Shown: one piece after another, positions 3,019-55,310 of the stretch | How the letters are laid out: the number at the start of each line of letters is the position of its first letter | Position numbering within the stretch: position 1 is the stretch's first letter | Assembly (NCBI RefSeq): GCF_007655135.1 | Contig: NC_045127.1 | Location: forward strand, 42,357,538-42,421,537 | Direction of reading: 5' to 3' | From: Punica granatum | Taxonomy: Eukaryota > Streptophyta > Magnoliopsida > Myrtales > Lythraceae | Length of the DNA stretch: 64,000 bases | Notes under the pieces: generated by a model | Databases searched by the model: none | What the model was told of the DNA's origin: nothing | What the model saw: the letters and a program-made list of their open reading frames with translations, nothing else | Program-made: the position numbers and the translations under genes

Positions 3019-3744
3019 GGTACAGTACAAAAATCCCTTTATAATTTGAACTTGAGGCAAATTAAACTCTGTGATTTTTTGATGGACAACTAACACAATG
3101 TGGTTTACTTTGAGAGACAAAAGGGACCTCACCATTAGTTTTTTTCATCACTTTTGATCTTCAAATTTTACCATTATTACCCACAAACTTCTAACTTTTT
3201 TTCAATTTGATCCTAAAATTCGAAGGAAAAAAAAAAGGAGGGATAGGGCATTAGGGCCGCCAGTTGGCGACCCCGACCCCACCATTGAAGTCGTCTGCAC
3301 CCACGGAAGATGCCAACGACCATGGAGATGGGGTCAAGGTCGCCGATTGGCAACCCCAGTTCCTCGATTCGACCGGATCTCAAGTTTGAGATCCCGGTTT
3401 ATTTAGGGGTTGGAGCCACCAATTGACAACTCCGATCCCACCTTTGAGGTTTTCGGCATTCTTTGTGGGTGTCAACAACCTCGGTAGTGGGGTCGGAGTC
3501 GCCAATCGGCGGCCCCAGCCCCTTTCCCCTTTTTCGAAGCTCAAGACCAAATTGTAAAAAATTAAAAGTTTGAGGGTAATAATGGTAAAAATAAAATTTT
3601 GAGAACCAAAAGTGACGAAAAAACTAGTGGTGAGATCCCTTATGTCTCACAAAATAAACCACAGAGTGTTAGTTGCTCATTGAAAAATCACATGGTCCAA
3701 TTTGCTTCAAACTCAAATCATAAGAGGATTTTTATTCTTTTTCC
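3019..3744. mobile_element. Foldback TIR element, Mutator-like, with a GC-rich core
   Basis: About 200 bp at the left (3019-3220) is matched in inverted orientation by the right (3540-3744); for example the stretch around 3080-3160 (AACTAACAC, GGGACCTCACCA, CATCACTTTTG) recurs reversed around 3600-3690. The ends are GG...CC. The flanks share TTTAGA at the expected duplication site (3010-3015 and 3745-3750), only six of nine bases, so the Mutator assignment is tentative. The core holds about four degenerate copies of a GC-rich motif with GCCAATTGGCGACCCC character. No coding capacity. Confidence 0.65.
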
Positions 3745-7707: not shown

Positions 7708-8164
7708 GGCCCTGTTTGGATTCAGGAACAAAAAATTTTAACTTTAACTTTAACTTTAACTTAACACACTACACAACAAAAACACAAATTTTCCAAGTAA
7801 AAAATTTTAACTGTAACTTTAACTCAACACACTACACAACAAAAACACACGTTTCCCAAGTCAAATTTATAATCATATCTCATTTATCTTTTTTCACAAT
7901 CAAAATCAAAATCAAAATCAAAGTTACTTTAACTCTGAATCCAAACGCACCATTAATTTTGATTTTGATTTTGATTGTGAAAAATGACAAATGAATGTGA
8001 TTATAAATTTTACTTGGAAAACGTGTGTTTTTATTGTGTAGTGTGTTGAGTTAAAGTTAAAGTTAAAACTTTTGACTTGGAAAATGTGTGTTTTTTTGTG
8101 TAGTGTGTTAAGTTAAAGTTAAAGTTAAAGTTAAAATTTTTTGTTCCTAAATCCAAACAGGGCC
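7708..8164. mobile_element. Long-TIR MITE, PIF/Harbinger-like (457 bp)
   Basis: Termini GGCCCTGTTTGGATT...AATCCAAACAGGGCC are inverted repeats, flanked on both sides by TGA (7705-7707 and 8165-8167), consistent with a 3-bp TNA-type duplication. Almost the whole element folds back on itself: runs of TTTAACTTTAAC on the left match GTTAAAGTTAAAG on the right, and the centre pairs ATCAAAATCAAAATC with GATTTTGATTTTGAT. No coding capacity. Confidence 0.8.
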
Positions 8165-13600: not shown

Positions 13601-15837
13601 TGCAGCAGTAATGTATCTACAATCGAGGTGCGCGTTTATCTCGTCATGGTCATTCACCTGCTGCATCCTACTACTGTCAGCCTTGTCAGCATTTGAGTTG
13701 ATCGAGGTGAATCGAATCGGGCCTTTCTTGACGTTTTTGAAGAGGTACTTCAATGACATTGACCGGTTGCACAGCTCCACATTCAAATGAGCATCGAATT
13801 TTACTAGGAGATTCCTACTATAGGGGACAACATAACGGTTGTCAAGCTGTGTGTCATTCTTAATAATGTACCTTCCATCATTTCTTCTCATGTATATGCG
13901 GAATGCTCCTTCATCCATCGTTGTTTTAGCATGGAATTTCTTTGGAAAATGATTGGCGCAATAATCCTTCACCATACATGGAGAGTTTCGATTTAAAATG
14001 CCGCAAGGGCCATGGACCATGAATTTCTCAACTATGTTGTACGCTGCTGGGTCCTCCTCTTTATTGGGAATCTCGGCAGAGATGATCTCATCAATCCGCG
14101 ATGCTGTCTGGATTTTATCCTCTGCATGTAAGAAGACTAATCTGTGGGCATGCGGTAGGCCTCTCTTTTGGAATTCTATTGTGTAGACAACTGTTTAAGA
14201 AAAATCATGAGTCATATAACTGTGAATACCATTTAAAACGCATAATAACACTCAAACTTCCAAATGAGTTTAGAGAAGCCATTCAAATAAAATCAGCAAT
14301 GCTAATCTATTTATGGAGTTGAAGGTCAACGGGGATACAAATGCAGTTTATGTTACTTTTGTCTTCAACCAATGGTTAATAGTAGAAAACGTCACACTTC
14401 ACAGCCATACAATGTTAGAGCTTTAAATGAACGGCCATACAGACAGGACGCAAGAATGGCAGAACTCATGGTGATCGATCCAATAGCCTTTTAAAATCCA
14501 TAAGAATTAAACCACAATTCTTTTCAGACATAATGAGCGAATGGGAACAATTACAAATGGAGCATAAAGAGAGCAGAACTTGATTTACCGTCCTTGAATC
14601 AGAAAATAACAAATAGTTTCGGTGAAGTTGTCGAAGGAACGTGAGATATTTGCAATATATCAAGATGTACCAGCAACGACTCTTCCGAATATATTGCGGC
14701 GCTTTATATCATCCATCAACTCCCACAACTTTATCGAGAAAACACGAATGACAACATCAATTCTGTCATCACTCTTCTGGCCTTCCAGTGTTTCAATAAA
14801 GTACTGGACTTCTGGCCACTTTGGGTTGCATGTGAATGTCAAGAATAAGTCGGGATGACCCATGGAGCGACATATGGCCATTGCATCCTAAGTGTGAAGA
14901 GAACAGGTGCACATGGCACCATAGATTATGTTTAGCTCGAGGATATTCTTAAGAGAATAGGTAGGAAAATAAGATTTAATATTTCAAACCGCTTTCATAT
15001 AGATTGGAAAGGATAGCCTACTTAGTAATTTTTAGCTCGATATCGAGGTCCGCCTGTACGAGTAGAAGGTAGAACTGTCATTCTGCCAATGCTATCAGGC
15101 ATGAGGCCTGCTTGCCTAATTGCATCTCTTAATCCGCTATACAACTCTGCCAGTAGCTGTCTCTGATAGTGTCGCATCCAGTTGAGTCTGTCTTCCTCTA
15201 TACAAGCAGAAGCATCGACCAAGAACTGCTGAAGTAAACGGCCTGCCCTGAACAAAGTTTGTGACTCTCCAGAACAGCTGTTGTAGGCAGAAAGTGACAT
15301 AGCGTGCACGCGAGTAACTGTCACAGATCCGTTGATTCCATAGAATACCGGAACTACGACATTCAATCTCCTATTGATTCTTTGAATTCCTACGAAACCA
15401 GCATCAAACTCGAATAAAATCCGAGAATGGACAGAGAGCACAAAAACTTCAATTTTTATTAATTGATCAAAAAATGGAATTCGGCCTAAATCTTGTCTTT
15501 TCATAGTCATAGGCTATGAGTTGTGCTCCGAATGCCGTTTTCCTCGAAACAGGGTCATCAGAACCTGCTTTTTTCGAGATACCAATTTGTCACGTCTTCT
15601 GCTGTATCATTCTCTGTTTCAAGGTAAACAAAATTAATAAAAATTGGAGTTTTTATGCTCTTTACCCATTCTCGGATTTGATTCGAGTTTGATGCCGGTT
15701 TCCTAGGAATTTGAAGAATCAATAGGAGATTGAAAGTCGTAGTTCCGGTATTCTGCGGAATCAACGGATTTGTGACAGTTACTCGCGTGCACACTACGTC
15801 AGTTGGTATCAGAGCCGTGTTCGCTCTTGGATTAGCG

Positions 15838-27921: not shown

Positions 27922-29136
27922 GGGTAAATTGCACTGGTGGTACAAAAAGTTTTACAAATATTTCAAGATTGTACAAAAAGTTTTTTTTGCTACTTGATGG
28001 TACAAAATGTTTTAAAACTGTTTATTTGTAGTACAAATCGTTAATTTACCATTGACGCCGTCAAGTGACGCTGACGTGGCTCACTACGTGTCAGCTCATT
28101 TCTAAAGTGGCCGAAACAGTAAACTAGTGTGGCATCCGGATCACTGGATCGGGTCGAATGGGGTCGGGCGAACTTTTAAATAAAACTCCAAACTTTTTAA
28201 AATTTCAAAACAACCTAAATTTTTTGGACTTTTTAAATTTTGCCCCAATCCTCTTTCTCCTGCACCGGTCATCGTCTTCCTCCTCCCCCTCCACTGTTCA
28301 AGCCCAAAGCTCCACCAACTTGAACCTGAGCCCGGTTCCGAGCTCGAGCTCTAGTTCCCAGCGCTTCTCCGTCAATCCGAAGTCCAAGGCCGCGCTTCTT
28401 GGACTCCTAAAGCCTCAGAAATCGTGCTTTGTCGAATTTGCCTGGGTCGTGTTCATTGGTGGGTGTTGTCTCTCGCTGGGGAATTGGGTTGAATTTGCTC
28501 AAGTAGGATTGATCGAATTTGCTCTGTTTCCGATTTAGGGTTTATGGAATTGGCGGTCTCAATGTGAATTCGAGTTGCGACTCTGATTGGCTTTAGAGCT
28601 GGCCACCTCTGGTCAGGACCTCCAAAGGACTTACCCTCTAGAAGAAATCGTGAGAGAAAGAGTAGGGTAGAAGTCATGCTTCGTCGATTCGAAGAATCGC
28701 CGGAACACTAAGACCGGAAAAACTCGACTTTTCCCCAAACGGTTCGGATCCACTGGGAAATTGGAGGCTTTGGTGATTGAACCGTCCTCGCCCAAGGAGT
28801 CGCCTTCGACTAGGGAAGATGATGAACAGTGGAAGGGAGGAGGAAGACGATGAACAGTGGAAGGAGAGAGAGGGTTGGGGCAAAATTCAAAAAATTCAAA
28901 AAATTTAGGTCAATTTTGAAATTTTAAAAAGTTTGGAGTTTTAATTAAAATTAAAAAAAATTATAATAATATTATTGTCACGTCAGTATTTTGCTAACGG
29001 CATCAATCACGAATTGACGATTTGTACTATAAAGAAACGGTTTTAAAACATTTTGTACCATCAAGTAGCAAAAAAAACTTTTTGTACCATCTTGAAACAT
29101 TTATAAAACTTTTTGGACCACCAGTGCAATTTACCC
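27922..29136. mobile_element. Mutator-like foldback element of the same family as 3845-4717 (1215 bp)
   Basis: Ends GGGTAAATTGCACTGGTGG and CCACCAGTGCAATTTACCC are inverted repeats. The flanks CAAATATAT (27913-27921) and TAAATATAT (29137-29145) form a 9-bp duplication with one mismatch. The arms extend about 350 bp, and even the GC-rich borders of the core (CATCGTCTTCCTCC / GGAGGAAGACGATG) pair. The core, about 28300-28860, contains Ser-rich and Pro-rich frames (SPVPSSSSSSQRFS at 28338) that look genic, perhaps a captured exon. The source gene is not recognised. Confidence 0.8.
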
Positions 29137-41894: not shown

Positions 41895-43563
41895 ATGGAG
41901 AAGGATTCTAGGGTTTCGGAGAACGCCGCCGACGGCCCTCATTCCTCTTACTGGCTGGACGCCTGCGAGGACATGTCCTGCGACGTCATGGGCGAGTTCA
42001 TCAATTTCCCCCCCGCTGACACCGCCAGCTCTGATCAGGACGCCCTCGTCAACGTTAATGATTTCTTCGGCGGCATCGATCACATCCTCGATAGCATCAA
42101 GAGCGGTGCCGGAGTCCCCACCTCTCATCCTCCCCCGCCTCCTCCTCCTCCCGGTGCCCAGTTCGGGGCCGACGGGAACCCCTCTGCAGCGCCACCGCTG
42201 CTGCAGCAGCCTGAAGCCACGGTCCCGTCTGATTCCGTCTGGCAACAGCAGGGAGACGCGGTTTGCAAGTCGCCGCACAACGAAGCTCCGAGGAATGGGA
42301 ACCGAGAGAGGGACCGGGACTCTGTTGGGGAGGAAAGGGGCGGCAAGAGGGCCCGGTTTGGCAGTTTTAAGAATGACAGGTTTCACTCAGGCAAGGGGCA
42401 TTGGTTTCAAAGGGACAGGGACAAGGAAAGATGCTTCAACCGTAAGAGGTCGAGGGACTCGGATGAGACCGATAGAAGAGATCGGGACCATGTCCGCAGA
42501 AGAGAGCATTACTGTGCCGGTTCTCGGAGGGATGGTAGAGAGAGGGACTGGAGGGAGCGGGAACCCCGGGGTTATTGGGAGAGGGACCGTCTCGGGACCA
42601 ATGAGATAGTTTTCCGCATGGGTGCCTGGGAAGCCGAGCGTAACCGAGATGGGAAGTCCAACGCCAACGGTCACCAAGACAGTGGACAGGTGCAGGACAG
42701 GCCCGAGGAGACTAAGGAGAAGCCTCCCGAAGAGCAAGCTCGTCAGTATCAGCTGGATGTTCTCGAACAGGCCAAGAGAAAGAACACGATAGCGTTCCTT
42801 GAAACTGGGGCGGGGAAGACCTTAATCGCTGTTCTACTAATGAAAAGTGTTTGTAGTGATTTGCAGAAGCTGAACAAGAAAATGCTGGCTGTATTCTTGG
42901 TCCCCAAAGTTCCTTTAGTCTACCAGGTAATGTGTGTCCCGCGAATGCTTCGGATTTTGAGTTTTGTAGTTATAATGTGTTTTCCTGAATAAGCCTCTGT
43001 GCCAACTGCCATCTCGTTCCTGTGCGCTTTCAGCAAGCAGAAGTCATTCGGGAGCGAACTGGTTTCCAAGTAGGCCATTATTGTGGTGAAATGGGACAGG
43101 ATTTCTGGGATGCTAGAAGGTGGCACCGGGAGTTCGAAACAAAGCAGGTACATCTGAAGCTTGTTTTCTTGGTTGTGCCGGGCATTTTTTTCATATATGA
43201 TCCAGCTAGAGTTCCAGTTCTTCAATCTTGTGCATGAGTTGCACTAGCACAGAACAAGCGTACCAATCATATTGAATGAAGCATATAGCACTGGAAAAGA
43301 AGATACTATGCAGGAAAGGAAGCTCGTTATCTAAGCCTTTCTGAATTTTATAGACTTGAAGATGTCTTAACTCCTTTCTGACCCACCATAATGAACATAA
43401 TTATTGTCAATAAATCCTTTCCTAAAGCTTCGGTATGTTCTAAGCATGGGGGAAAATTGACAGTCTGTGAATATTGAACCAAAGTAAGAGACATTTAAAT
43501 AAATATTCCTTAGCAAAACAAAGTTTGAATTCTAAAATAGTCACTTGGCTAAATAGGGAGAGA

Positions 43564-43598
<35 letters not shown>

Positions 43599-46500
43599 GA
43601 GAGAGAGAGAGAGAGAGAGAGAGATATTGGCAAGAACATTATGGGGTGGATAGTAAATGGATTCGAGGAGATGAAAAAGGAAAGTTACATTTGCATACAA
43701 TAGTTGGAGCAGCCATTGAATTAGCTGGAAGTGTAAAAGGCAAAATGTAGATTTATCTTTGTGAAGAGATACAATTACTTTGCTTGTATTGGAATATAAC
43801 TGAGATAAACTGCATTGTCTTACAATTGTTTTGACAACAAAATCCTAAAGAGGAGATGAAACATATGATTTATCAAGAACCTGCTGTGTAATGTGTTGAA
43901 CTTGCATTTGGTACACAATCCTATACTCAATATTACATCCTTTAAAAAAAAAAAAATGCTGATACTAACCTTGTTTTGTTCTCACATGAATTCCAAGACT
44001 TAAGTCCTACTTGCTTGATTTGGCTAGACTTCTGTCCATGCCTTTCAGAAGCACATCATTTACCATGCATCCTTCTGACCAGCTACACAAGAGTATTTTA
44101 CATGCGGTTGTCGATGGAGCTCAACTTTTACCTGCATTTCCCGGGATAGGAAACCTATTTTTGCTGCTTTGTCGGTTCCCTTTTCTGTTCTAGGTTAAAA
44201 GGAGGCGGTTTAGAAGTTATATTTCATTCTGTATTATGTTATCAACATAACATTCTGTGGCGATTAGGCAACTACCTTCTGAGAGCATTATTACCAGTCT
44301 GTTGATTCGATTAGTAACAAAGTTCACTTATCCTTTCAGACTGGTAATAATGCTCTCACACTCTCAAAAGGTAGTTCCTTTCTTAATGACGCTCTCATGA
44401 GACTTGAGAGTTCACTCTCGGAAGGTGGTTCTCATGAGACTGGTAATAAGTAATAACGCTCTTATGAGACTTGAGAGTTCACTCTCAAAGGTAGTTCTCC
44501 TTTCTTAAGAGCATTATTACCAGTCTGTTAGTTTGTCTGTTGATTTGATTGGCAAGCATTTTTACGAGTCTGCTGCACAGGCAGCAGTTTTTATCCTGTT
44601 GCTGCCAATGCTTCCAATTATTCCAAAGGTCAGCTGGGACAATTTAGTATAACAACGATAATACCCGAAAGTAGGGCCCCTTTGATGTGCGGGTTTAAAA
44701 ATTAAAATGAAGTTTGATTAATATTAGTCATATTACTTGAAACAATCTATTGGATGGTATCTATATATGAAAGAATCATTAATAAAATGTCAATTAAACT
44801 TACAGTAATCAAGTAACGTGAAAAGTTTTTCCTTTATGCAAATTAAAAAATTTCAGGATTTAAGAAGGGAATACAGAGTAAAATCTATGGATAACAATAT
44901 AAAAACGGGAAGAATGCTACAATTCATTATTTAGCTAATAAGTCTCATCGGAAATTCAATTCTTCCTCCCTCTCTTCATAAATTAAAAAAAAATCGTGAA
45001 TACATGAATTATGTATAAACTAAAATGAAAAAAAAATGTATATAAAAGACCCTCAATACTCTCTCTCTCTCTCTAATGGAAGCAATATTTTCTATAATCA
45101 GGATCAGTCACAATCTATTGTTATCTTTGAATCTATAATGTTGTTACAAATCCAGATGACGGGTCTCACAAAATATTCTGTAGATAATTGCATCTCATCA
45201 TAAACCATGTGAAAGATGAAAATCTCATTAGACATACTACTTACAAATAATTTATGGAAAAATTTTAAAACTAAAAAATTCAAATATAATGTTAATGACA
45301 CATTGGTTCATTTTGAGGCCATCAAGCTGTCACACCTACCACCGAGGACTGGTGGTCTAGTGGTAACAACCTGGGACATTTGGCTTGAAGTACCAAGTTC
45401 GAGTGACCTCCCTGTGCAACCACAGATCTCCTAATGCAAGAGTCTTCAGTGTAGCCAGGAAGGACTATAGGGGGGTTCTTACACGAACCTGGGGGAGTAC
45501 AAGTAAGCAGGCCTGCTCACCACTGGCGCCTTAGTGGGGGGCTGAGTCCTGTGAGGGTACCTATGCTGGTAAAAAATCGGAGTGCGTGGGGTGGGTGACA
45601 GCCCACTACTTCAAACCTCCTTTTTTTCTTCAAAAAAAAAGCTGGTTCTACCTCACCTCTTTTTTCTTATATATATAGATATAGGCATGGAGCTCACACA
45701 TCGTGCATAGTAGAATAGGAAATACCTTTCATTTTTGTTAATTTCTCCTCATCAAATAAAAAATAGCGATATTTAAGAGAATCCTTTGCTGCTTCATCAT
45801 GAAGAACCATTTCCAGGCTGATCAAGTCACTGTTGTTTGCTTCTTTTTATTCATGACATCCCATTTTGATCATCCTAACTTAAACTTTCACATATCAGTT
45901 CAGCTGTTATCTCTATAGAAAGATCCAAATTTTACTTTGGTTCAGAAATTGAGAGAGAGAGAGAGAGTAAAAAAAATGTAGAGCATTAATTTCCTTTTTA
46001 TAATGTGGTGACGGACTCATTGATGAGCCTCACAAAATATTATGCATAGATTTAGATTTAGATTTAGATATAGATACCTTAAGTAAACTCTTGTTTTATA
46101 TCCACCACATGAATCTTATCATAGTCTTAACTTAGTTACAGACACTAACCTGCTAATTCCTTCTCTGGCATCTGAGTTGTAAGGTATAAGTCATCTATTT
46201 GGTTGCAGATAGCAGCTTCAATGTGCTCATTTATACGTTGCACCTCAAAAATGGATTGGGATGAGATCCCAACATTTCATTTTATTACCCTTTTCAGAGC
46301 TGGAATCATCTTTCTCAAGATGTTCTTTCATATCTCAGCCGAAAAGAAAAGGTCAATATTCATCTGGTGAAGTGGTTCTATAATACATTCCTTCTCATTG
46401 CAGGTACTAGTAATGACTGCTCAGATATTACTGAACGTCTTGAGGCACAGCATAATTAAAATGGAAATGATAAATCTTCTTATTTTGGACGAGTGCCATC

Positions 46501-47557
46501 ATGCTGTAAAGAAACATCCTTATTCTTTGGTAATGTCTGAGTTTTATCATACGACGCCAAAGGAAAAGAGACCGTCTGTTTTTGGGATGACTGCTTCACC
46601 TGTCAACTTAAAGGGTACATTTCCAACTCCCTTAGTTCGTTCTCATGGCTCCTGTATTCAGTCTTGGATTTTCCCTTCAGTATTATTAACTGATTTAGGA
46701 GTTATCCTCTTATGTAACATGCAGGGGTTTCTAGCCAAGTTGACTGTGCTATTAAGATCCATAATCTCGAAAGCAAGCTGGATTCCACAGTTTGCACCAT
46801 AAAGGATCGTAAGGAGCTGGAAAAGCATGTCCCGATGCCCTCCGAGGTTGTGGTGGAGTATGATAGAGCAGCTAGCTTGTGGTCCCTCCATGAACAAATA
46901 AAACAAATGGAAGTGGCTGTGGAAGAAGCTGCACAATCTAGCTCTAGGAGGAGCAAGTGGCAATTTATGGGCGCAAGAGATGCAGGTGCCAAGGAAGAAT
47001 TGCATCAAATTTATGGCGTCTCCGAGAGAACAGAGAGTGATGGTGCTGCTAATTTAATACAGAAGCTGAGAGCTATCAACTATGCTCTTGGTGAACTTGG
47101 TCAATGGTGTGCTTACAAGGTGCTGCAGACTTCGGCACGAATCTTGCTTAAATTTATCAGATTATTATGCAGTGGTTGAGTTGGTTCTTTCTTTGCAGGT
47201 TGCGCAATCATTTTTGACGGCTTTACAAAATGACGAGAGGACAAATTACCAGCTCGATGTCAAGTTCCAGGAATCTTACTTAACTAAGGTTGTGTCACTC
47301 TTACAATGCCAATTATCAGAGGGGGCTGTTTCTGATAGGGACATGAAAGAATCGGACAATATAACATCTGAAGGGACAGAACCTGATGAGATAGAGGAGG
47401 GCGAACTTCCTGATAGCCATGGTTAGCGAGCCTCATGACCCTCTTATTGGCAAAATCGAATACAATAATAATTACTCAGTTTTTAGAAGCAATATAGTCC
47501 ATTTCTATTTTTGCATTGTTCTTGCTATAAAGATTCACGTCCATATTTATATATATA

Positions 47558-47589
<32 letters not shown>

Positions 47590-50500
47590 AGTTCCGAGCT
47601 GATTTCTCACGCTATCACATCATCAAAAATATAAAACAAGTCTCTTGCATTGCCATGTCATCATCATTTATACTAAGGAAATTTTATAATTTTTTTACCA
47701 AGAAAATATTATTGTATAGATTGTCCTTTATATTCATAATATTTTCTTATTTACTATTAAGAAAAGTGGATGATAGTGAAATATATAATATATTATATTA
47801 TTCTAATTATGTAGATGTTTTGTTGTGTGTGTATATACTGATATTATAGTAGAGTATTTTAATAAAAAGGAAAGGAATACTTTTTATTAATTATTAAGGA
47901 AATAATTTGCATATAATATTATTTACTAATTTGAGATTAAGAATGAAATAATTCATATATGATGTTTCCTATTACGTTTTCTTAACTCATAGTATAAAAT
48001 CCTATTAAAAGTGATATATAATTACAAATCTCATGTCTTGTTTCCTTTGCTCTCTCTCTTTGGGTTCTTCTCTCTTCATACTCCATTATTGTCAAGTTTA
48101 TGTTTTCACGCGATTTTTCATTTATTTTTACGAGTAATTGCATATTTACATAAAGATAATAGTTTATTAGTTTTAATTTTTTATCTAAAATTTTGTCGTT
48201 AGTTTTATATTGTTTGAGAAACAATTCAATGTTCGAAGAATCAATATCGGAGATAAGCTATATGATTGTTTTTATTAGTATAATTTTTTTTCAATTGCAA
48301 CTCTTCTATTGATTGTACTTTTGTTAGGTGATTAATATATATAATATTCTTTTATTTTTAATTATAAGTAGATAATTTACTCAATATCATCATCATTATT
48401 ATTGTTCTTATCTTTGTTTAAGAATTATTTTCTCTACCTAGTTCGAAAATACAATTTTTTTAGATATATATTAGAATATTATTATTTTCTTTTCCAATCT
48501 CGCCCATCACGCGGTCATCTAGTTTGTCTAACTCCCACCTAAAGCTCAAAGGTGATGGTCTGAATCCCGGCAAAGGATCTCTTATGTCTTGCTTATTGGT
48601 CAAGAATTAAGGAAATAGTCAAGTGAAATCCTTGAGCTTTTTCTTCCTGACACTTGAATGTTTTCTTTTCTTTCTTTGGCTGCAAACAAGGAAAAACAAA
48701 TTAAATAGATGGTCAAAAGCTTATCTTTTATCTTTTCAACTTGATCGCGATTTACATGCCTTACAATCTTTCATTGCTGATTTCTAGGTAAGTCTATAAA
48801 ACTTATCTTAGTGGCTTCCTTTTAACAACTTGAAATGAGACAATATCGGTTTCTCTAAGTAGAGAAATCCATTTACAATTTGATTTCTCATGTCAAAATG
48901 ATGGTCAATTATCTTGGTCGGTACCTTTTCAATTTGTTTCCATGTCAGCACCATTTAACAGGTTAAGGATGGAAAGACAGTATTGAACATTCAATCCCAT
49001 GCATAAAACACGATTATAAAGGAAAAAGAAAATGAAGAGGACAATTCAAAAAGCAGTTGATTATAAAGGACCAAAAGTGCACTTTCTTTCATTGAAGTTT
49101 AAGAGAGAGTGAAAGTAGTGGGTTGGAGACGAAGTAGCAGTGGCTCTAGAAGCCTTAGATATTTCCTGCTTGCAGATGTCATGACCCGGACAATTTCACC
49201 ACTTATCTGTCACATGTTTCCTGCTTGATCAAAAAACCCTCACAGAAGAAACTTTTGAAAAGCCTTAATAAGTTATCTGTCGTAAAAGGTCCAGTGCTTT
49301 TATTAACTTTTCACATGTTCTAATCGTGGAGTCACTGAAACTGACAAGAAAAGCTTGGGTGATCCACCCATAGTTGGACATAATGCTTTTACTGTGGAAT
49401 TGTTCTCTCTTTAAAGGTTCTTCTTTGATGTAGTTGTTTCTGGTGGGGAGCATGTGGATGAGATAATTGGTGCTGCCGTCGCTGATGGAAAAGTGTCTCC
49501 AAAAGTTCAATCACTAATAAAGATACTGCTCAAGTATCAGCGCACGGAGGATTTTCGTGCAATCATATTTGTCGAACGTGTTGTAGCTGCTTTGGTTCTT
49601 CCAAAGGTTGGACCTGCCATGACGAATCCCTGATATTAATTTCAGTTCTTTATGGAGTTCTTAATATTGAATTTGTGTTTCAACCAATATCCAGGTTTTT
49701 GCAGAACTTCCATCTCTTAGTTTTGTCAAATGTGCAAGCTTGATTGGCCACAACAATAGTCAAGAGATGCGGACGTGCCAAATGCAGGACACAATTGGCA
49801 AGTTTCGGGATGGTCGAGTAAGTCCACTTTCTCAGGTTCATAGAATATCCCTCTGGGTAGAATGTGCTGATATGGTAGATTGCTTGTGTAGGTCACCCTG
49901 CTGGTTGCCACTAGTGTTGCTGAGGAAGGGCTGGATATTCGACAGTGCAATGTGGTCATCCGTTTTGACCTAGCGAAGACTGTTCTGGCATACATTCAGT
50001 CTCGGGGTCGTGCAAGAAAGCCTGGATCAGATTACATCTTGATGGTCGAGAGGTATTATATCATTGCCACCTCGATATACGCATCCTTTTATGACAGAAT
50101 TTGAGAACCTGACTTTTGTTAATTTTTAGGGGGAATTTGTCACATGCTGCATTCTTGAGGAATGCACGCAATAGTGAAGAGACCTTACGAAAGGAAGCAA
50201 TTGAGAGAACCGATATTAGTCATCTCAAGGATACTTCGAAATTTATATCAGTGGATGCAACCCCAGGAACAGTGTATCAGGTTGAGTCAACTGGTGCTGT
50301 TGTGAGCTTGAATTCTGCTGTCGGACTTATCCATTTTTACTGCTCTCAGCTGCCCAGTGACCGGTAACTTTAAATTCTTATATCGAGCATATTTTTCCAC
50401 TGCTCTTCTTCTTTCCTTAGGACTAAATTTTCTCTTTATTATCTTCAGATACTCAATTCTTCGGCCTGAATTCATCATGGAGAAGCATGAGAAGCCTGGA

Positions 50501-53500
50501 GGTCCCACTGAGTATTCGTGCAGGCTTCAACTCCCCTGCAATGCCCCATTTGAAAAGCTTGAGGGTCCTGTGTGCAGCTCAATGCGCTTAGCCCAACAGG
50601 CATGGTGTCTTGGTCCTTTAAATTTTTTACTGAATACCCATTCCACCGATTAGGGAATATAATAAATATGTTGCTCCCAATGTGCAGGCTGTTTGTCTGG
50701 CTGCCTGCAAGAAGCTCCATGAGATGGGGGCATTTACTGACATGCTCTTACCGGACAAAGGAAGTGGAGAAGAAGGCAAGAGGGTAGACTCCACTGATGA
50801 AGGAGATCCGCTTCCTGGTACTGCCCGACACAGAGAGTTCTATCCTGAAGGTGTTGCTAATGTTCTCCAGGTTGGTTAATTGTTTCTTTGACATATATCC
50901 ATCAATCTTCCTTGTTGATTTGTTTCAAGTGGGCAGAAAAAATTATATGCAATTAATTTCTTTTGTACGAAAAACTCGAAAACTTTTTTGTTGAATTCTG
51001 GCAGCATCTGTATGTATTTATTATTCTGAAAGATCAACAAAAATGTTGATGAAATATATTTTTCTATTATATATTATATATTTATGTATATATATATATA
51101 TATATTTCTTTTGGCTGTAAACCTACTCAAATTGGCTGAACTTTCAGGGAGATTGGATCTTGCGTGGAGGGAAAAGTTGTGATGGGTCCAGAATGCTTCA
51201 TTTACATATGTATGCCGTCAAATGTGTAAATGTTGGCTCTACAAAAGATCAGTTTCTGACGCAAGTTTCAGATTTCTCAGTACTATTTTGCAATAAGCTG
51301 GATGCAGAGGTACTTTGACTAGTCTTGGGAAATACTTAATTGTTAACAAGACGAAGCGTCTCTCTCTAAAAGCAATCGTCAATTGTAGGTGTTATCGATG
51401 TCTATGGATCTATTTATCGCGCGAACCATGATAACAAAAGCATCTCTTGTTTACAAGAGAGCGATTGATATCACAGAAGATCAGGTCAGTTCTTCTATTC
51501 TTTTTGTCGGTGATATATTTATTTATTTAATTGTTTGGGTAAAATGCTGAAGTTGCATCCTTAGTTGAGTTTGTGTTCTTGGTCTTGTGCAGTTGACAGT
51601 TCTTAAAAGCTTTCATGTAAGGTTGATGAGTATCGTGCTTGATGTGGATGTTGAACCTTCCACCACTCCATGGGATCCTGCAAAGGCATATCTATTTGTC
51701 CCTGTGGTTGGCGATGAATCTATAGATCCTTTTAAAGAAATTGACTGGAATCTGGTCGAAGCAATCGTGCAAACAGATGCATGGAGCAATCCGCTGCAGA
51801 GGGCTCGACCTGATGTTTACCTTGGTACAAACGAGCGCACTCTTGGTGGGGACAGGAGGGAGTACGGGTTTGGCAAGTTGCGTCACGGCATGGCCTTTGG
51901 GAACAAGTCCCATCCAACCTATGGCATCAGAGGTGCTGTGGCACAATTTGACGTCGTGAAAGCTTCCGGACTGGTCGCTAATAGAGATGCCCTTGAAATG
52001 CAAAGTTACTCCGATATGATCCAAAAAAGATTGGTGATGGCTGATTCCTTTATGAGTTCAGACGATCTAGTGGGAAGAATTGTGACAGCTGCTCACTCTG
52101 GGAAGCGGTTCTATGTGGACTCAATATGTTATGATATGAATGCTAATAACTCTTTCCCGAGGAAAGAAGGGTATCTTGGCCCGCTCGAGTACAGCTCATA
52201 CGCGGATTATTACTGCCAAAAGTAAGATCAATTCGTTCCATTTTAAGGAGGCAGAATTTGTTTCGGCTTACTTGATTTCTGCTTCCTAAAACACACTGGT
52301 GTCTAACATCGTCATTGAATAGCTGCAATGCACCTTAGATGTGCCAGAAGAACAAAGAAGCTCAATTTAGTCCCGTGGGTGAAAACCTTAACTGCTGTCA
52401 TTCTATGGGGTTTTTTCGTAAACCGTCAGTCTCTATTACCTCTATGATAGCAGTTATGAACCCAAGAGGATTAAGTTGAGCTTTTTGGTTCTTCTTGGGC
52501 AACTAAGGGTGCATTTGGCTATTCGTTTTCCATATTATCAGATATGGAGTTGATCTGATACATAAGGAACAGCCGTTAATTAGAGGGCGTGGCGTTTCAT
52601 ATTGCAAGAATCTCTTATCTCCCAGATTTGAGCATTCGGAAGGTATGTAGCTTCATCTTTTTTATTTCTCTATTTTTCTCCCTCCAGTTTTAGTTTGTTG
52701 TGATTTGTGGAACAGGATGCTTGATGTAATTTTCGTATGGGTTTATAGTTTCATAAATTTGATGAGTGATGCTTCTCATTGGATTATGCAGCGGAGTCTG
52801 ATGAAACTCTTGACAAAACATACTATGTGTTCCTCCCTCCTGAGCTTTGTCTTGTACATCCACTCCCTGGATCACTAATTCGAGGTGCTCAGAGGCTCCC
52901 CTCAATCATGAGAAGGGTTGAGAGCATGCTGCTTGCTATTCAACTTCAGGACGTAATCAATTACCCAGTCCCCGCTTCGAGGGTATGTAGTTTATTGAAT
53001 GGTACATTCTAACTTCTTGCAACAATTTTTATCTGATCAAGTGTTCTGAATTCGCCAGATCCTGGAAGCTTTGACAGCTGCCTCGTGCCAGGAGACATTT
53101 TGCTATGAAAGGGCGGAGCTTCTGGGAGATGCCTATCTGAAATGGGTCGTCAGCAGGTTTTTGTTTCTTAAGTATCCTCAGAAGCATGAGGGTCAGCTTA
53201 CAAGGATGAGACAGCAAATGGTGAGCAACATGGTTTTATACGAGTATGCATTGAGCAAAGGGCTTCAATCATACATCCAGGCAGATCGGTTTGCTCCATC
53301 TAGATGGGCTGCACCCGGTGTCCTTCCGGTGTTTGATGAGGACACCAAGGATGAGGAATCATCCTTGTTCGACGATGAGACTTCAGCCACAAAGGGTGAG
53401 TCTAGGAGGGAGTTTAACGGTGATGTGGATTATGACGATATGGAAGACGGTGAACTCGAGAGTGACTCGAGTTCTTACCGAGTCCTGTCAAGTAAGACAC

Positions 53501-54780
53501 TGGCAGATGTTGTTGAAGCACTGATTGGGGTATATTACGTGGAAGGTGGGAAAAATGCTGCCAACCACCTCATGAAATGGGTAGGAATACAGGTCGAGTT
53601 CGATAATGAAGAGATAGAGCATGCAATAAAGCCATCCAATGTGCCCGAGAGCGTCCTTAGAAGTGTGAATTTTGATGCATTAGAAGCTGCGCTAAATATT
53701 AAGTTCATAGACAGGGGACTGTTGGTGGAAGCTATTACTCATGCATCCCGACCATCTTCTGGAGTCTCGTGCTACCAGCGGTTGGAGTTTGTTGGCGATG
53801 CTGTGTTGGATCACCTTATCACGAGGCATCTTTTCTTCACATACACTGATCTTCCACCTGGGCGCTTGACAGACCTTCGAGCTGCTGCAGTAAACAATGA
53901 AAATTTTGCTCGTGTCGCTGTTAAACACAAGCTCCATTTGCACCTTCGGCATGGGTCTAGTGCTCTGGAGAGGCAGGTAATTGGGTTGTCTTTATCCTGT
54001 TTGAAGTGTTGCAACACCACTTTATTACTCTGTCCACCCTGATTTTGGCACTTCTGGCTCATTCTTTCCCAGATAAGAGATTTTGTAAAAGAAGTTCAGG
54101 AAGAAATATCGAAGCCTGGGTTTAACTCTTTCGGTTTGGGAGATTGTAAAGCTCCAAAAGTTCTCGGTGACATTGTTGAATCAATTGCTGGTGCTATATT
54201 TCTGGACAATGAACGGGATACGGCCGTTGTCTGGAAGGTTTGTTCACAATGAAGAGCATTCTTTTTTTCGGCGTTTGATATGGAAGTGTTGGGTGAAAGA
54301 GTTCTCTTTGTTTTATTTCTATGTTTCATCAGGTTTTTCAGCCTCTATTGCACCCAATGGTCACTCCAGAAACACTCCCAATGCATCCGGTTCGTGAGCT
54401 GCAGGAGCGATGCCAGCAGCAAGCTGAGGGCTTGGAGTATAAAGCCTGTCGTAGTGGCAATTTGGCCACAGTTGAAGTATTCATCGATGGCGTACAGGTT
54501 GGAGTAGCTCAGAACCCACAAAAGAAAATGGCACAGAAACTTGCTGCCCGGAATGCACTGGCTATTCTGAAGGAGAGGGAGACCACTTTCGCAAAGGAGA
54601 AGGGCGAAAATGGAGATGGAAAGAAGAAAAATGGCAGCCCGACATTTACAAGGCAAACATTAAATGATATCTGCTTGCGCCGGAACTGGCCAATGCCGTT
54701 CTATCGGTAAGACATTGTATTTATCTTTCATTGCATTGAATCTGAAAAAATATAAATAAATAAATAAATAAATGTTTTTT

Positions 54781-54811
<31 letters not shown>

Positions 54812-55310
54812 TGTTGTGGGCAATTGATATTACTTTCTAAGAAGAGAAAGCGTTATCATCATACGGAACCAACCAATTTCATCTGAAAAGTTATGCTCGT
54901 CAATTCGTTGATTTTATCTTTTGATGTATATGCGCACGCTCGCTGGGACATGCATGTTTGTTTTGTTTGTGTTACCAAGTTCTCTTAAAGCATCAAATAT
55001 TCTGCCCATAAATGATATGGTTCTGCCTAACATGCTGGACATTTATCAAATAACATAGCGACACCGCTGCGTGACTGGATTATCAATATAGTATGTTGTT
55101 TTACATTGGTAGGCTGCTTGCACCTGTAGGTGTGTGAATGAAGGCGGCCCTGCACATGCGAAGAGGTTTACGTATGCGGTGCGTGTGAATACGACCGACA
55201 GGGGATGGACTGATGAATGCGTGGGAGAGCCAATGCCAAGCGTCAAGAAGGCCAAAGACTCTGCCGCGGTCCTCCTCTTGGAGCTCCTCAACAAATGGTA
55301 TTCCTCATGA
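41895..55310 (+). CDS. DCL1: DICER-LIKE 1, miRNA-processing RNase III (20 coding exons, 1938 residues)
   Basis: Nuclear enzyme that cuts pri-miRNAs and pre-miRNAs to ~21-nt duplexes. Exons: 41895-42926, 43034-43147, 46404-46614, 46725-47119, 47199-47421, 49434-49606, 49695-49817, 49892-50052, 50130-50363, 50449-50599, 50688-50870, 51148-51309, 51389-51484, 51593-52221, 52542-52642, 52792-52982, 53059-53976, 54073-54237, 54333-54706, 55130-55310. They join in frame to 5817 nt. Start: first in-frame ATG; the text [14 protein letters not shown] and [15 protein letters not shown] is the DCL1 N-terminus. Then an Arg/Asp-rich NLS-like region, helicase with ETGAGKT (303-309) and DECH (411-414), helicase C domain with [15 protein letters not shown]283, PAZ (within exon 14), RNase IIIa ([12 protein letters not shown]1413, D1417), RNase IIIb ([14 protein letters not shown]1636, D1640) and two dsRBDs (about 1774-1840 and 1865-1935). 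No stop or missing catalytic residue. Intron 2 (3.3 kb) and intron 5 (2.0 kb) are large and repeat-filled; intron 10 is GC-AG. Confidence 0.98.
43566..43625. repeat. Poly-G (32) plus (GA)n tract in DCL1 intron 2
   Basis: An uninterrupted run of 32 G is followed by about 14 GA repeats, on the sense strand of the intron. Confidence 0.95.
44273..44530. repeat. Nested inverted and direct repeats in DCL1 intron 2
   Basis: A perfect 21-bp inverted repeat (44281-44301 GAGAGCATTATTACCAGTCT+G with 44337-44357) forms a hairpin with a 35-nt loop, and CTACCTT / AAGGTAG extends it. A third copy in direct orientation lies at 44508-44528. Between them, two direct copies of GAGACTTGAGAGTTCACTCT text occur at about 44400 and 44466. 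No other element is recognised in 43626-45320. Confidence 0.85.
45330..45638 (+). mobile_element. tRNA-derived SINE in DCL1 intron 2
   Basis: GGTGGTCTAGTGGTAAC (A-box) is followed by CCAAGTTCGAGTGACC (B-box). A body with GGACTATAGGGGGGTTC and GGGGTGGGTGACAGCCC-type text ends in CCTCCTTTTTTTC/A-rich sequence. AAGCTG occurs at both borders (45324-45329 and 45639-45644), a short possible duplication. The tRNA-like head plus this body fits plant SINEs. Confidence 0.7.
47540..47592. repeat. (TA)n/(TAA)n microsatellite in DCL1 intron 5
   Basis: A TATATAATATATAATAATAA run continues as about 11 TAA units. The rest of intron 5 (47593-49433) is AT-rich. A possible tRNA-like SINE relic lies near 48500-48580 (GCGGTCATCTAGTTTG, then GGTCTGAATCCC). 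Confidence 0.85.
51298..51398 (+). promoter_or_regulatory. miR162 target site of DCL1, created by splicing exons 12 and 13
   Basis: Exon 12 ends CTGGATGCAGAG (51298-51309) and exon 13 begins GTGTTATCGA (51389-51398). The joined 22-nt site is complementary to miR162 with one bulged base, at the same exon junction known in Arabidopsis DCL1. In unspliced RNA the site is interrupted by intron 12, so only mature mRNA is a target. In Arabidopsis this pairing provides negative feedback on DCL1. Confidence 0.85.
52321..52520 (+). ncRNA. Long intronic hairpin in DCL1 intron 14, candidate MIR838-like precursor
   Basis: The 5' arm (52321-52408) and 3' arm (about 52434-52520) pair over nearly 85 nt with few bulges. 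The 5' pieces AGCTGCAATGCACC, AGAAGAAC and AAGCTCAATTTAG face GGGTGCATTTGGCT, GGTTCTTCTT and TTAAGTTGAGCTT, and TTAACTGCTGTCAT faces ATGATAGCAGTTA. The loop is about 25 nt. The hairpin fills most of the 320-nt intron. In Arabidopsis, intron 14 of DCL1 contains MIR838, and this is intron 14 by coding-exon count. The 3'-arm segment 52482-52501 (TTTTTGGTTCTTCTTGGGCA) sits where miR838 does and looks loosely similar to miR838 as I recall it. Processing is inferred, not shown. Confidence 0.75.
54783..54811. repeat. Poly-G (29) tract in DCL1 intron 19
   Basis: An uninterrupted run of 29 G on the sense strand, preceded by (AAAT)n and TTTTTTTT. Confidence 0.95.

What the first reader, a model, noticed from the sequence alone, without database searches (positions are those of the whole stretch)
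52321..52520. Intron 14 of DCL1 is a ~200-nt hairpin: a candidate self-regulatory miRNA precursor like Arabidopsis MIR838
The two arms pair over about 85 nt with few bulges. Intron DNA this short would not keep that pairing by chance. The hairpin lies in the same intron that hosts MIR838 in Arabidopsis DCL1. If DCL1 cuts it during transcription, the pre-mRNA is severed, giving feedback on DCL1 itself. The candidate mature strand (52482-52501) only loosely resembles miR838 as I recall it. So the system may be conserved by position and structure rather than by mature sequence, or may have arisen separately.
Basis: partly seen in the sequence, partly recalled or inferred. Interest (0 to 1): 0.88.

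Follow-up and report, generated by a model that had tools for sequence, protein, structure and literature searches.

The report
DCL1 intron hairpin resembling MIR838
In a genome that matches pomegranate, intron 14 of the microRNA-making gene DCL1 holds a long, single-copy hairpin where Arabidopsis carries MIR838, and DCL1 would likely cut it and so limit its own production.

Summary
Intron 14 (52222-52541) of a complete 20-exon DCL1 gene folds into a 208-nt hairpin, 52317-52524, with 79 pairs; 0 of 200 shuffles of 52321-52520 fold as well (z -9.7). The miR162 site, across exons 12/13 as in Arabidopsis, fixes the intron number. The protein is 99% identical to Punica granatum DCL1. One copy was found in the 320-Mb genome.

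MIR838 (RF03974) is the only one of 4227 Rfam families below E 1 in this intron, but its score (25.3 bits) is far under the gathering cut-off (190). Unrelated hairpins also hit miRNA families, so that E-value is weak. Arm-level, pairing-preserving nulls favour resemblance (0 and 5 of 3000); pair-column nulls are marginal to negative.

Most likely it is a MIR838-type cis feedback hairpin, probably of common descent, drifted in mature sequence. Dicing, feedback and small RNAs are untested. Prior art: Medicago DCL1 intron 14 has a hairpin with three matching 21-nt reads. A new member of a known kind, not a new kind.

The parts
41895..55310 (+). DCL1 gene, coding exons 1-20 (1938 aa)
   Evidence: Hand-built exon model, GT-AG introns (GC-AG in intron 10), 0 internal stops; exon 14 matches Arabidopsis DCL1 7eld_A at E 1.4e-105; 99% to a Punica granatum protein
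51298..51309 (+). miR162 target site, 5' half (end of exon 12)
   Evidence: CTGGATGCAGAG at the exon 12 end; three loci with perfect miR162 that pass Rfam MIR162_1 in the same genome
51389..51400 (+). miR162 target site, 3' half (start of exon 13)
   Evidence: GTGTTATCGATG
51593..52221 (+). DCL1 exon 14 (PAZ region)
52222..52541 (+). DCL1 intron 14, 320 nt, GTAAG...CAG, phase 2; if retained, stop TAA at 52223-52225
52303..52307 (+). Candidate branch-point CTAAC (branch A 52306), 11 nt 5' of the hairpin; 235 nt from the 3' splice site in line, 27 nt if the hairpin is looped out
   Evidence: Motif search, one of four YTNAY motifs in the intron; inference
52317..52401 (+). Hairpin 5' arm
52402..52443 (+). 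Hairpin terminal loop region (holds a small inner stem)
52444..52524 (+). Hairpin 3' arm; stem base 17 nt from the 3' splice site
52482..52502 (+). Predicted 21-nt product at the place of miR838 (52481-52501 aligns to miR838, 14 of 21 identical)
   Evidence: predicted only
52341..52361 (+). Predicted opposite strand of that duplex (2-nt 3' overhangs, 3 unpaired bases per strand)
   Evidence: predicted only
52542..52642 (+). DCL1 exon 15

Best explanation
Intron 14 of this DCL1 gene folds into a 208-nt hairpin at the site of Arabidopsis MIR838, which DCL1 likely cuts out of its own pre-mRNA, so that excess DCL1 would lower DCL1 output. Shown: the gene, the intron number, the hairpin, its single copy at the sensitivity used, and the stop codon that a retained intron 14 would bring at once. 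Inferred: DCL1 enters at the stem base and cuts in 21-nt steps; a cut intron cannot be spliced, so full-length mRNA is lost. Retention gives the same loss by truncation. The best-placed branch-point motif (CTAAC) lies just 5' of the hairpin and the 3' splice site just 3' of it. DCL1 could therefore still separate lariat and exon 15 after the first splicing step, which needs no co-transcriptional cut. Sequence resemblance makes common descent with MIR838 more likely than not. The 21-nt product would be a by-product that is free to drift.
For: Fold z -9.66, 0 of 200 shuffles. Intron 14 fixed by the miR162 exon 12/13 junction (the Arabidopsis junction and intron 14 from PMC4429486 and PMC4833791, passages). 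MIR838 is the only one of 4227 Rfam families below E 1 in the intron, full model 1-170, E 0.0075. Arms resemble the RF03974 consensus beyond pairing: 0 of 3000 (column shuffle) and 5 of 3000 (3-bp blocks); 18 of 1500 and 65 of 1500 for single arms. Of 15,948 windows scored on both strands, 6 reach the score and 5 of these lie on the hairpin. In the Rfam alignment 18 of 50 lettered pairs differ on both sides yet pair, 4 are broken. One match in the genome at E 0.001, and one for the 5' arm alone at E 10. A 21-nt duplex with 2-nt overhangs fits. No good target site in DCL1 coding mRNA (best 15 of 21 among 90 hairpin 21-mers, ungapped), so feedback would act by cutting, not by targeting. Precedent: Medicago intron 14 hairpin with three 21-nt reads (PMC4833791).
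Against: No small-RNA, degradome or RNA-seq data could be read. The Rfam score is far below gathering (25.3 against 190), and E becomes 1.5 over the whole window. Three control hairpins hit miRNA families at best E 3e-19, 0.036 and 0.0008. Pair-column nulls are not significant with cheap gaps (426, 433 and 511 of 2000) and give 9 to 100 of 500 in eight other settings. Ten unrelated pomegranate miRNAs reach 10-13 identities in the hairpin against 14 for miR838. The minus strand scores as well as the plus strand. Salvia DCL1 has no stem-loop meeting miRNA criteria in its 19 introns (PMC4429486), and a grape intron scan matched no miR838 (PMC2717091). In Medicago 5' RACE found no fragment with its 5' end in intron 14 (PMC4833791). 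Introns 1, 11 and 13 also lack a YTNAY motif near the 3' splice site, so the branch-point argument is weak.
Confidence: 0.6

Rival explanations
1. A young or neutral inverted duplication, or the remnant of a foldback element, that happens to sit in DCL1 intron 14 and does nothing.
For: The window holds other long inverted repeats (34 pairs), and five other loci fold more strongly. Pair-column similarity to MIR838 is not robust. Intron 14 without the hairpin is 112 nt, close to 13 of the other 18 introns, which are 74-110 nt, as if 208 nt had been inserted.
Against: One match in 320 Mb at E 0.001, and one for the 5' arm alone at E 10, so neither family nor parent was found. No direct repeat of 5 nt or more at the ends. 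Exact coincidence with the MIR838 intron and the best Rfam match.
Confidence: 0.22
2. A splicing element only: the stem loops out 208 nt, brings the CTAAC branch point to 27 nt from the 3' splice site and sets the rate of intron 14 removal without being diced.
For: Position of CTAAC, hairpin and 3' splice site. Medicago retains intron 14 in 9% of DCL1 mRNA in seed and 15-22% elsewhere (PMC4833791). 5 of 18 C-terminally short DCL1 proteins in a set of 184 end at the exon 14 border, one of them (P0128) from an assembled contig of transcript size.
Against: Does not explain the precedent of 21-nt RNAs in Arabidopsis and Medicago. Other introns lack the motif too. The end-point count is biased, because the query ended at that border; four others of the 18 end at other exon borders.
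Confidence: 0.1
3. An ordinary intronic small-RNA gene whose product silences other genes, processed by DCL1 or DCL4 from the excised intron, with no effect on DCL1.
For: Long, nearly continuous stem with few bulges. Published term 'miR838 mirtron' (PMC12825306). Inefficient co-transcriptional processing of miR838 (PMC9023350).
Against: Host gene is the processing enzyme itself, repeated in Arabidopsis, Medicago and, at another intron, moss. No target search was made outside DCL1.
Confidence: 0.08

Closest known systems
MIR838, Arabidopsis thaliana DCL1 intron 14 (Rfam RF03974)
   Same: Same gene, same intron, same kind of structure; the predicted 21-nt strand lies at the same place on the 3' arm; best Rfam family for the intron
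   Different: Mature strand 14 of 21; 25.3 bits against a cut-off of 190; 7 of 57 consensus pairs fall in a gap; 88 nt stand against 30 model positions in the loop part; expression unknown
Medicago truncatula DCL1 intron 14 hairpin (PMC4833791, passages)
   Same: Intron 14, hairpin with a miR838-like stretch, premature stop on retention
   Different: There three 21-nt reads map to the stem-loop, none at the miR838 homologue; sequence not available here (supplement), so not aligned
ppt-miR1047, Physcomitrella DCL1a intron 7
   Same: Intronic hairpin in DCL1, proposed same feedback
   Different: Other intron, other sequence; held to be independent (PMC4429486, PMC3565333, passages)
DCL1 5' UTR stem-loop of Brassicaceae (PMC12825306, passages)
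   Same: DCL1 binding to its own transcript
   Different: In the 5' UTR, no small RNA reads mapped there; not sought in this window

Membership tests
MIR838 (RF03974) | Lies in intron 14 of DCL1 | tested here: met
   20-exon model, miR162 site at exon 12/13
MIR838 (RF03974) | Score at or above the Rfam gathering cut-off (190 bits) | tested here: not met
   25.3 bits; no hit in the gathering scan
MIR838 (RF03974) | Sequence resemblance beyond pairing | tested here: inconclusive
   0 and 5 of 3000, 18 and 65 of 1500, but 426-511 of 2000 and 9-100 of 500
MIR838 (RF03974) | Mature miR838 sequence kept | tested here: not met
   14 of 21 at 52481-52501; ten unrelated miRNAs reach 10-13
Plant MIRNA locus (criteria recalled: Axtell and Meyers 2018) | Hairpin under 300 nt with a 21-nt duplex, 2-nt 3' overhangs, at most 5 mismatches | tested here: met
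   208-nt hairpin; 52482-52502 with 52341-52361, 3 unpaired bases per strand
Plant MIRNA locus (criteria recalled: Axtell and Meyers 2018) | Precise 21-nt reads of both strands in replicate libraries | not testable with these tools
   No read data; the 10 novel pomegranate miRNAs of PMC4880961 Table 3 do not match the window, but that study mapped reads to poplar
DCL1-intron self-regulatory hairpins (functional kind) | DCL1 cuts the hairpin and lowers its own full-length mRNA | not testable with these tools
   Needs degradome or RACE data and a mutant
Foldback transposon / MITE | Multi-copy with target-site duplications | tested here: not met
   1 match in 320 Mb at E 0.001; no direct repeat of 5 nt or more at the ends. 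The positive control with another hairpin did not complete

The most novel reading that the evidence does not exclude
The DCL1 intron-14 hairpin is an ancient rosid 'fuse': Arabidopsis, Medicago and pomegranate inherit the same hairpin, selection keeps its double-stranded shape and its place between branch point and 3' splice site, and the 21-nt product is a dispensable by-product free to drift. MIR838 would then be not an Arabidopsis novelty but one visible face of an old cis-regulatory dicing site.
Probability: 0.4. Interest if true: 0.72.

Novelty: new member of a known kind. Interest (0 to 1): 0.5.

Why it matters
miR838 has been called non-conserved (PMC4833791) or seemingly Arabidopsis-specific (PMC4053937). 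A third lineage, Myrtales, with a hairpin in the same intron makes an old, structure-conserved feedback on DCL1 testable. It also bears on whether some plant MIRNA genes are kept for the act of dicing rather than for the small RNA.

Tried and rejected
Rfam gathering scan of the window: 0 hits. Whole-window permissive scan: MIR838 appears only here, but at E 1.5, one of 12 rows that all stay below their families' cut-offs. Scans for DCL1 relatives in viral contigs (exon 14) and bacterial and archaeal genome contigs (exon 17): none, so intron DNA of another plant could not be had and compensatory changes were counted only against the Rfam consensus. The Rfam E-value as proof of homology: rejected, because of three control hairpins one gave a far lower E (3e-19), one a lower E (0.0008) and one a higher E (0.036) for other families. 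Energy as proof: rejected, other hairpins in the window are as stable. Self-targeting of DCL1 coding mRNA: best 15 of 21 among 90 hairpin 21-mers, ungapped, rejected. Arm strings in the paper library: 0 papers; in three pomegranate small-RNA papers the terms miR838, DCL1 and short arm strings were not found in the main text; supplements could not be read. Plant structured-RNA survey PMC12218528: DCL1 and Dicer not found in its text. Exon-14-end truncated proteins as simple intron retention: rejected for P0128, P0141, P0142 and P0150, since the added residues do not fit reading through a GT donor; they need another junction or are model errors.

Full report
What is there. The window is part of a 320-Mb assembly. 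Its DCL1 protein is 99% identical to Punica granatum CDL15_Pgr023568; the next matches are Trapa incisa (86%) and Rhodamnia argentea (82%) (635 matches, best 120 listed). I take it as pomegranate or a very near relative. A hand-built 20-exon model runs from 41895 to 55310, 1938 aa, without internal stop. The miR162 site CTGGATGCAGAG|GTGTTATCGATG is split across exons 12 and 13, as in Arabidopsis (PMC4429486 passages), so the intron at 52222-52541 is intron 14. Exon 14 gives one match in the genome. Three loci carry a perfect miR162 and all three pass the Rfam MIR162_1 cut-off, so the parts of the miR162 loop are present as well.

The hairpin. 52321-52520 folds at -90.6 kcal/mol, z -9.66, 0 of 200 shuffles as stable. 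The stem runs from 52317/52524, with 79 pairs, a lower stem of 64 nt on its 5' side, an asymmetric internal loop and a 13-bp upper helix. No other DCL1 intron folds like it (19 introns). In a scan of 5104 windows of 200 nt (both strands, step 25) it is the sixth distinct locus by energy; the five above it are richer in G+C (0.555-0.67 against 0.42), and after correction for G+C two loci, 7826 and 3326, stay above it. Stability alone is no proof of function.

Is it MIR838? With permissive thresholds the intron matches RF03974 MIR838 end to end, E 0.0075, 25.3 bits; the next family is at E 2.5 (4 rows). Over the whole window the same hit has E 1.5. Three control hairpins of 320 nt hit other miRNA families at best E 3e-19, 0.036 and 0.0008, and none of the three lists MIR838. 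So the E-value is inflated by pairing; what speaks for MIR838 is that the only low-E family is the one expected from the position. Null tests that keep the pairing: the summed local score of both arms against the consensus is 48 against 27.9 +/- 3.8, 0 of 3000 (single columns), and against 30.6 +/- 4.3, 5 of 3000 (3-bp blocks). Single arms against dinucleotide shuffles: 18 of 1500 (3') and 65 of 1500 (5'). Scored along both strands of the window, 6 of 15,948 positions reach 48, five of them on the hairpin, on both strands. Alignments of whole pair columns are weaker: 426, 433 and 511 of 2000 with cheap gaps, and 9 to 100 of 500 in eight settings. The miR838 match is 14 of 21 at 52481-52501, against 10 to 13 for ten unrelated miRNAs. 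In the Rfam alignment 57 pairs exist: 7 fall in a gap, 24 are identical, 18 are changed on both sides and still paired, 4 changed on one side, 4 broken; that alignment was fitted to the structure. My judgement: common descent more likely than not, sequence-based family membership not met.

Origin. The hairpin has no second match at E 0.001, and the 5' arm alone has none at E 10; the search passes over very common words, so this bounds rather than excludes repeats. No direct repeat of 5 nt or more flanks it. A recent inverted duplication of another gene or an active repeat is therefore not supported; a positive control with another hairpin of the window did not complete (last try), nor was the 3' arm alone.

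How it would work. A retained intron 14 gives a stop at its first full codon (K*). The stem base is 17 nt from the 3' splice site. No YTNAY motif lies within 60 nt of that site; of the four in the intron, CTAAC lies 11 nt before the hairpin, 27 nt from the site if the stem is looped out, and one (branch A 52391) lies inside the hairpin. Introns 1, 11 and 13 also lack a nearby motif, so this is a hint only. If it is right, DCL1 could cut between lariat and exon 15 up to the second splicing step. None of 90 hairpin 21-mers has more than 15 of 21 complementary bases, ungapped, in the DCL1 coding mRNA, so the feedback would act by cutting in cis.

Prior art. Arabidopsis intron 14 and MIR838 and moss intron 7 and miR1047 are described in PMC4429486, PMC4833791 (Arabidopsis only) and PMC3565333, passages read. 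PMC4833791 reports a Medicago intron 14 hairpin with a miR838-like stretch and three 21-nt reads that match the stem-loop, none of them the miR838 homologue; intron 14 retention in 9% of DCL1 mRNA in seed and 15-22% elsewhere; and unsuccessful 5' RACE. Salvia has no stem-loop meeting miRNA criteria in 19 introns; a scan of the introns of 56 grape biogenesis genes, which asked for targets in grape exons, matched no known miRNA (PMC2717091). A Brachypodium paper calls miR838 seemingly Arabidopsis-specific (PMC4053937). Searches of the library for miR838 with DCL1 and intron (36 of 36 listed, the best 30, 30 and 15 listed of 7,767, 468 and 1,284), for the arm strings (none) and for pomegranate small RNAs (20 listed of 2,217) showed no paper on a DCL1 intron hairpin in Myrtales. 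I saw passages or single sections of 12 papers, none whole, and no supplements.

Side evidence. Of 184 DCL1-like proteins fetched (120 listed of 635, 65, one shared), 18 are short at the C-terminus; 5 of these end within three residues of the exon 14 border: P0128, P0141, P0142, P0150, P0127; four more end near the borders of exons 11, 15 and 17 (two). P0128 comes from an assembled contig of transcript size. The query ended at the exon 14 border, which favours such hits, and the added residues of four of the five do not fit plain intron retention. I read this as a hint of unsettled splicing at intron 14 in other plants, no more.

Verdict. A real, MIR838-positioned hairpin, single-copy at the sensitivity used, in pomegranate DCL1; function by analogy, likely but untested.

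Noticed in passing
50600-50687: DCL1 intron 10 has a GC-AG splice donor (CAG|GCATGG) in the hand-built model.
   Followed up: no
P0128, P0141, P0142, P0150, P0127: DCL1 proteins of other plants that end within three residues of the exon 14 border by alignment, then 0-45 unaligned residues; P0103 (Cajanus cajan) has an in-frame insert at the same border.
   Followed up: partly
7778-8095: AT-rich inverted repeat that matches Rfam MIR869 at E 3e-19 (81 bits, below its cut-off of 330) and several other miRNA families; probably a foldback element. Copy number could not be tested.
   Followed up: partly
44201-44520 (DCL1 intron 2): Repeat-like stretch with inverted units around AGAGCATTATTACCAGTC in a 3256-nt intron; second-best fold among DCL1 introns.
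   Followed up: no
15292-15804, 3024-3738 and 27922-29136: Long inverted repeats with arms of 121-173 nt, 81-91% complementary, likely transposon-derived.
   Followed up: no
G000:C7:2565665-2565685, C7:4563853-4563873, C8:25748752-25748772: Three MIR162 loci with perfect mature miR162, all above the Rfam cut-off.
   Followed up: yes
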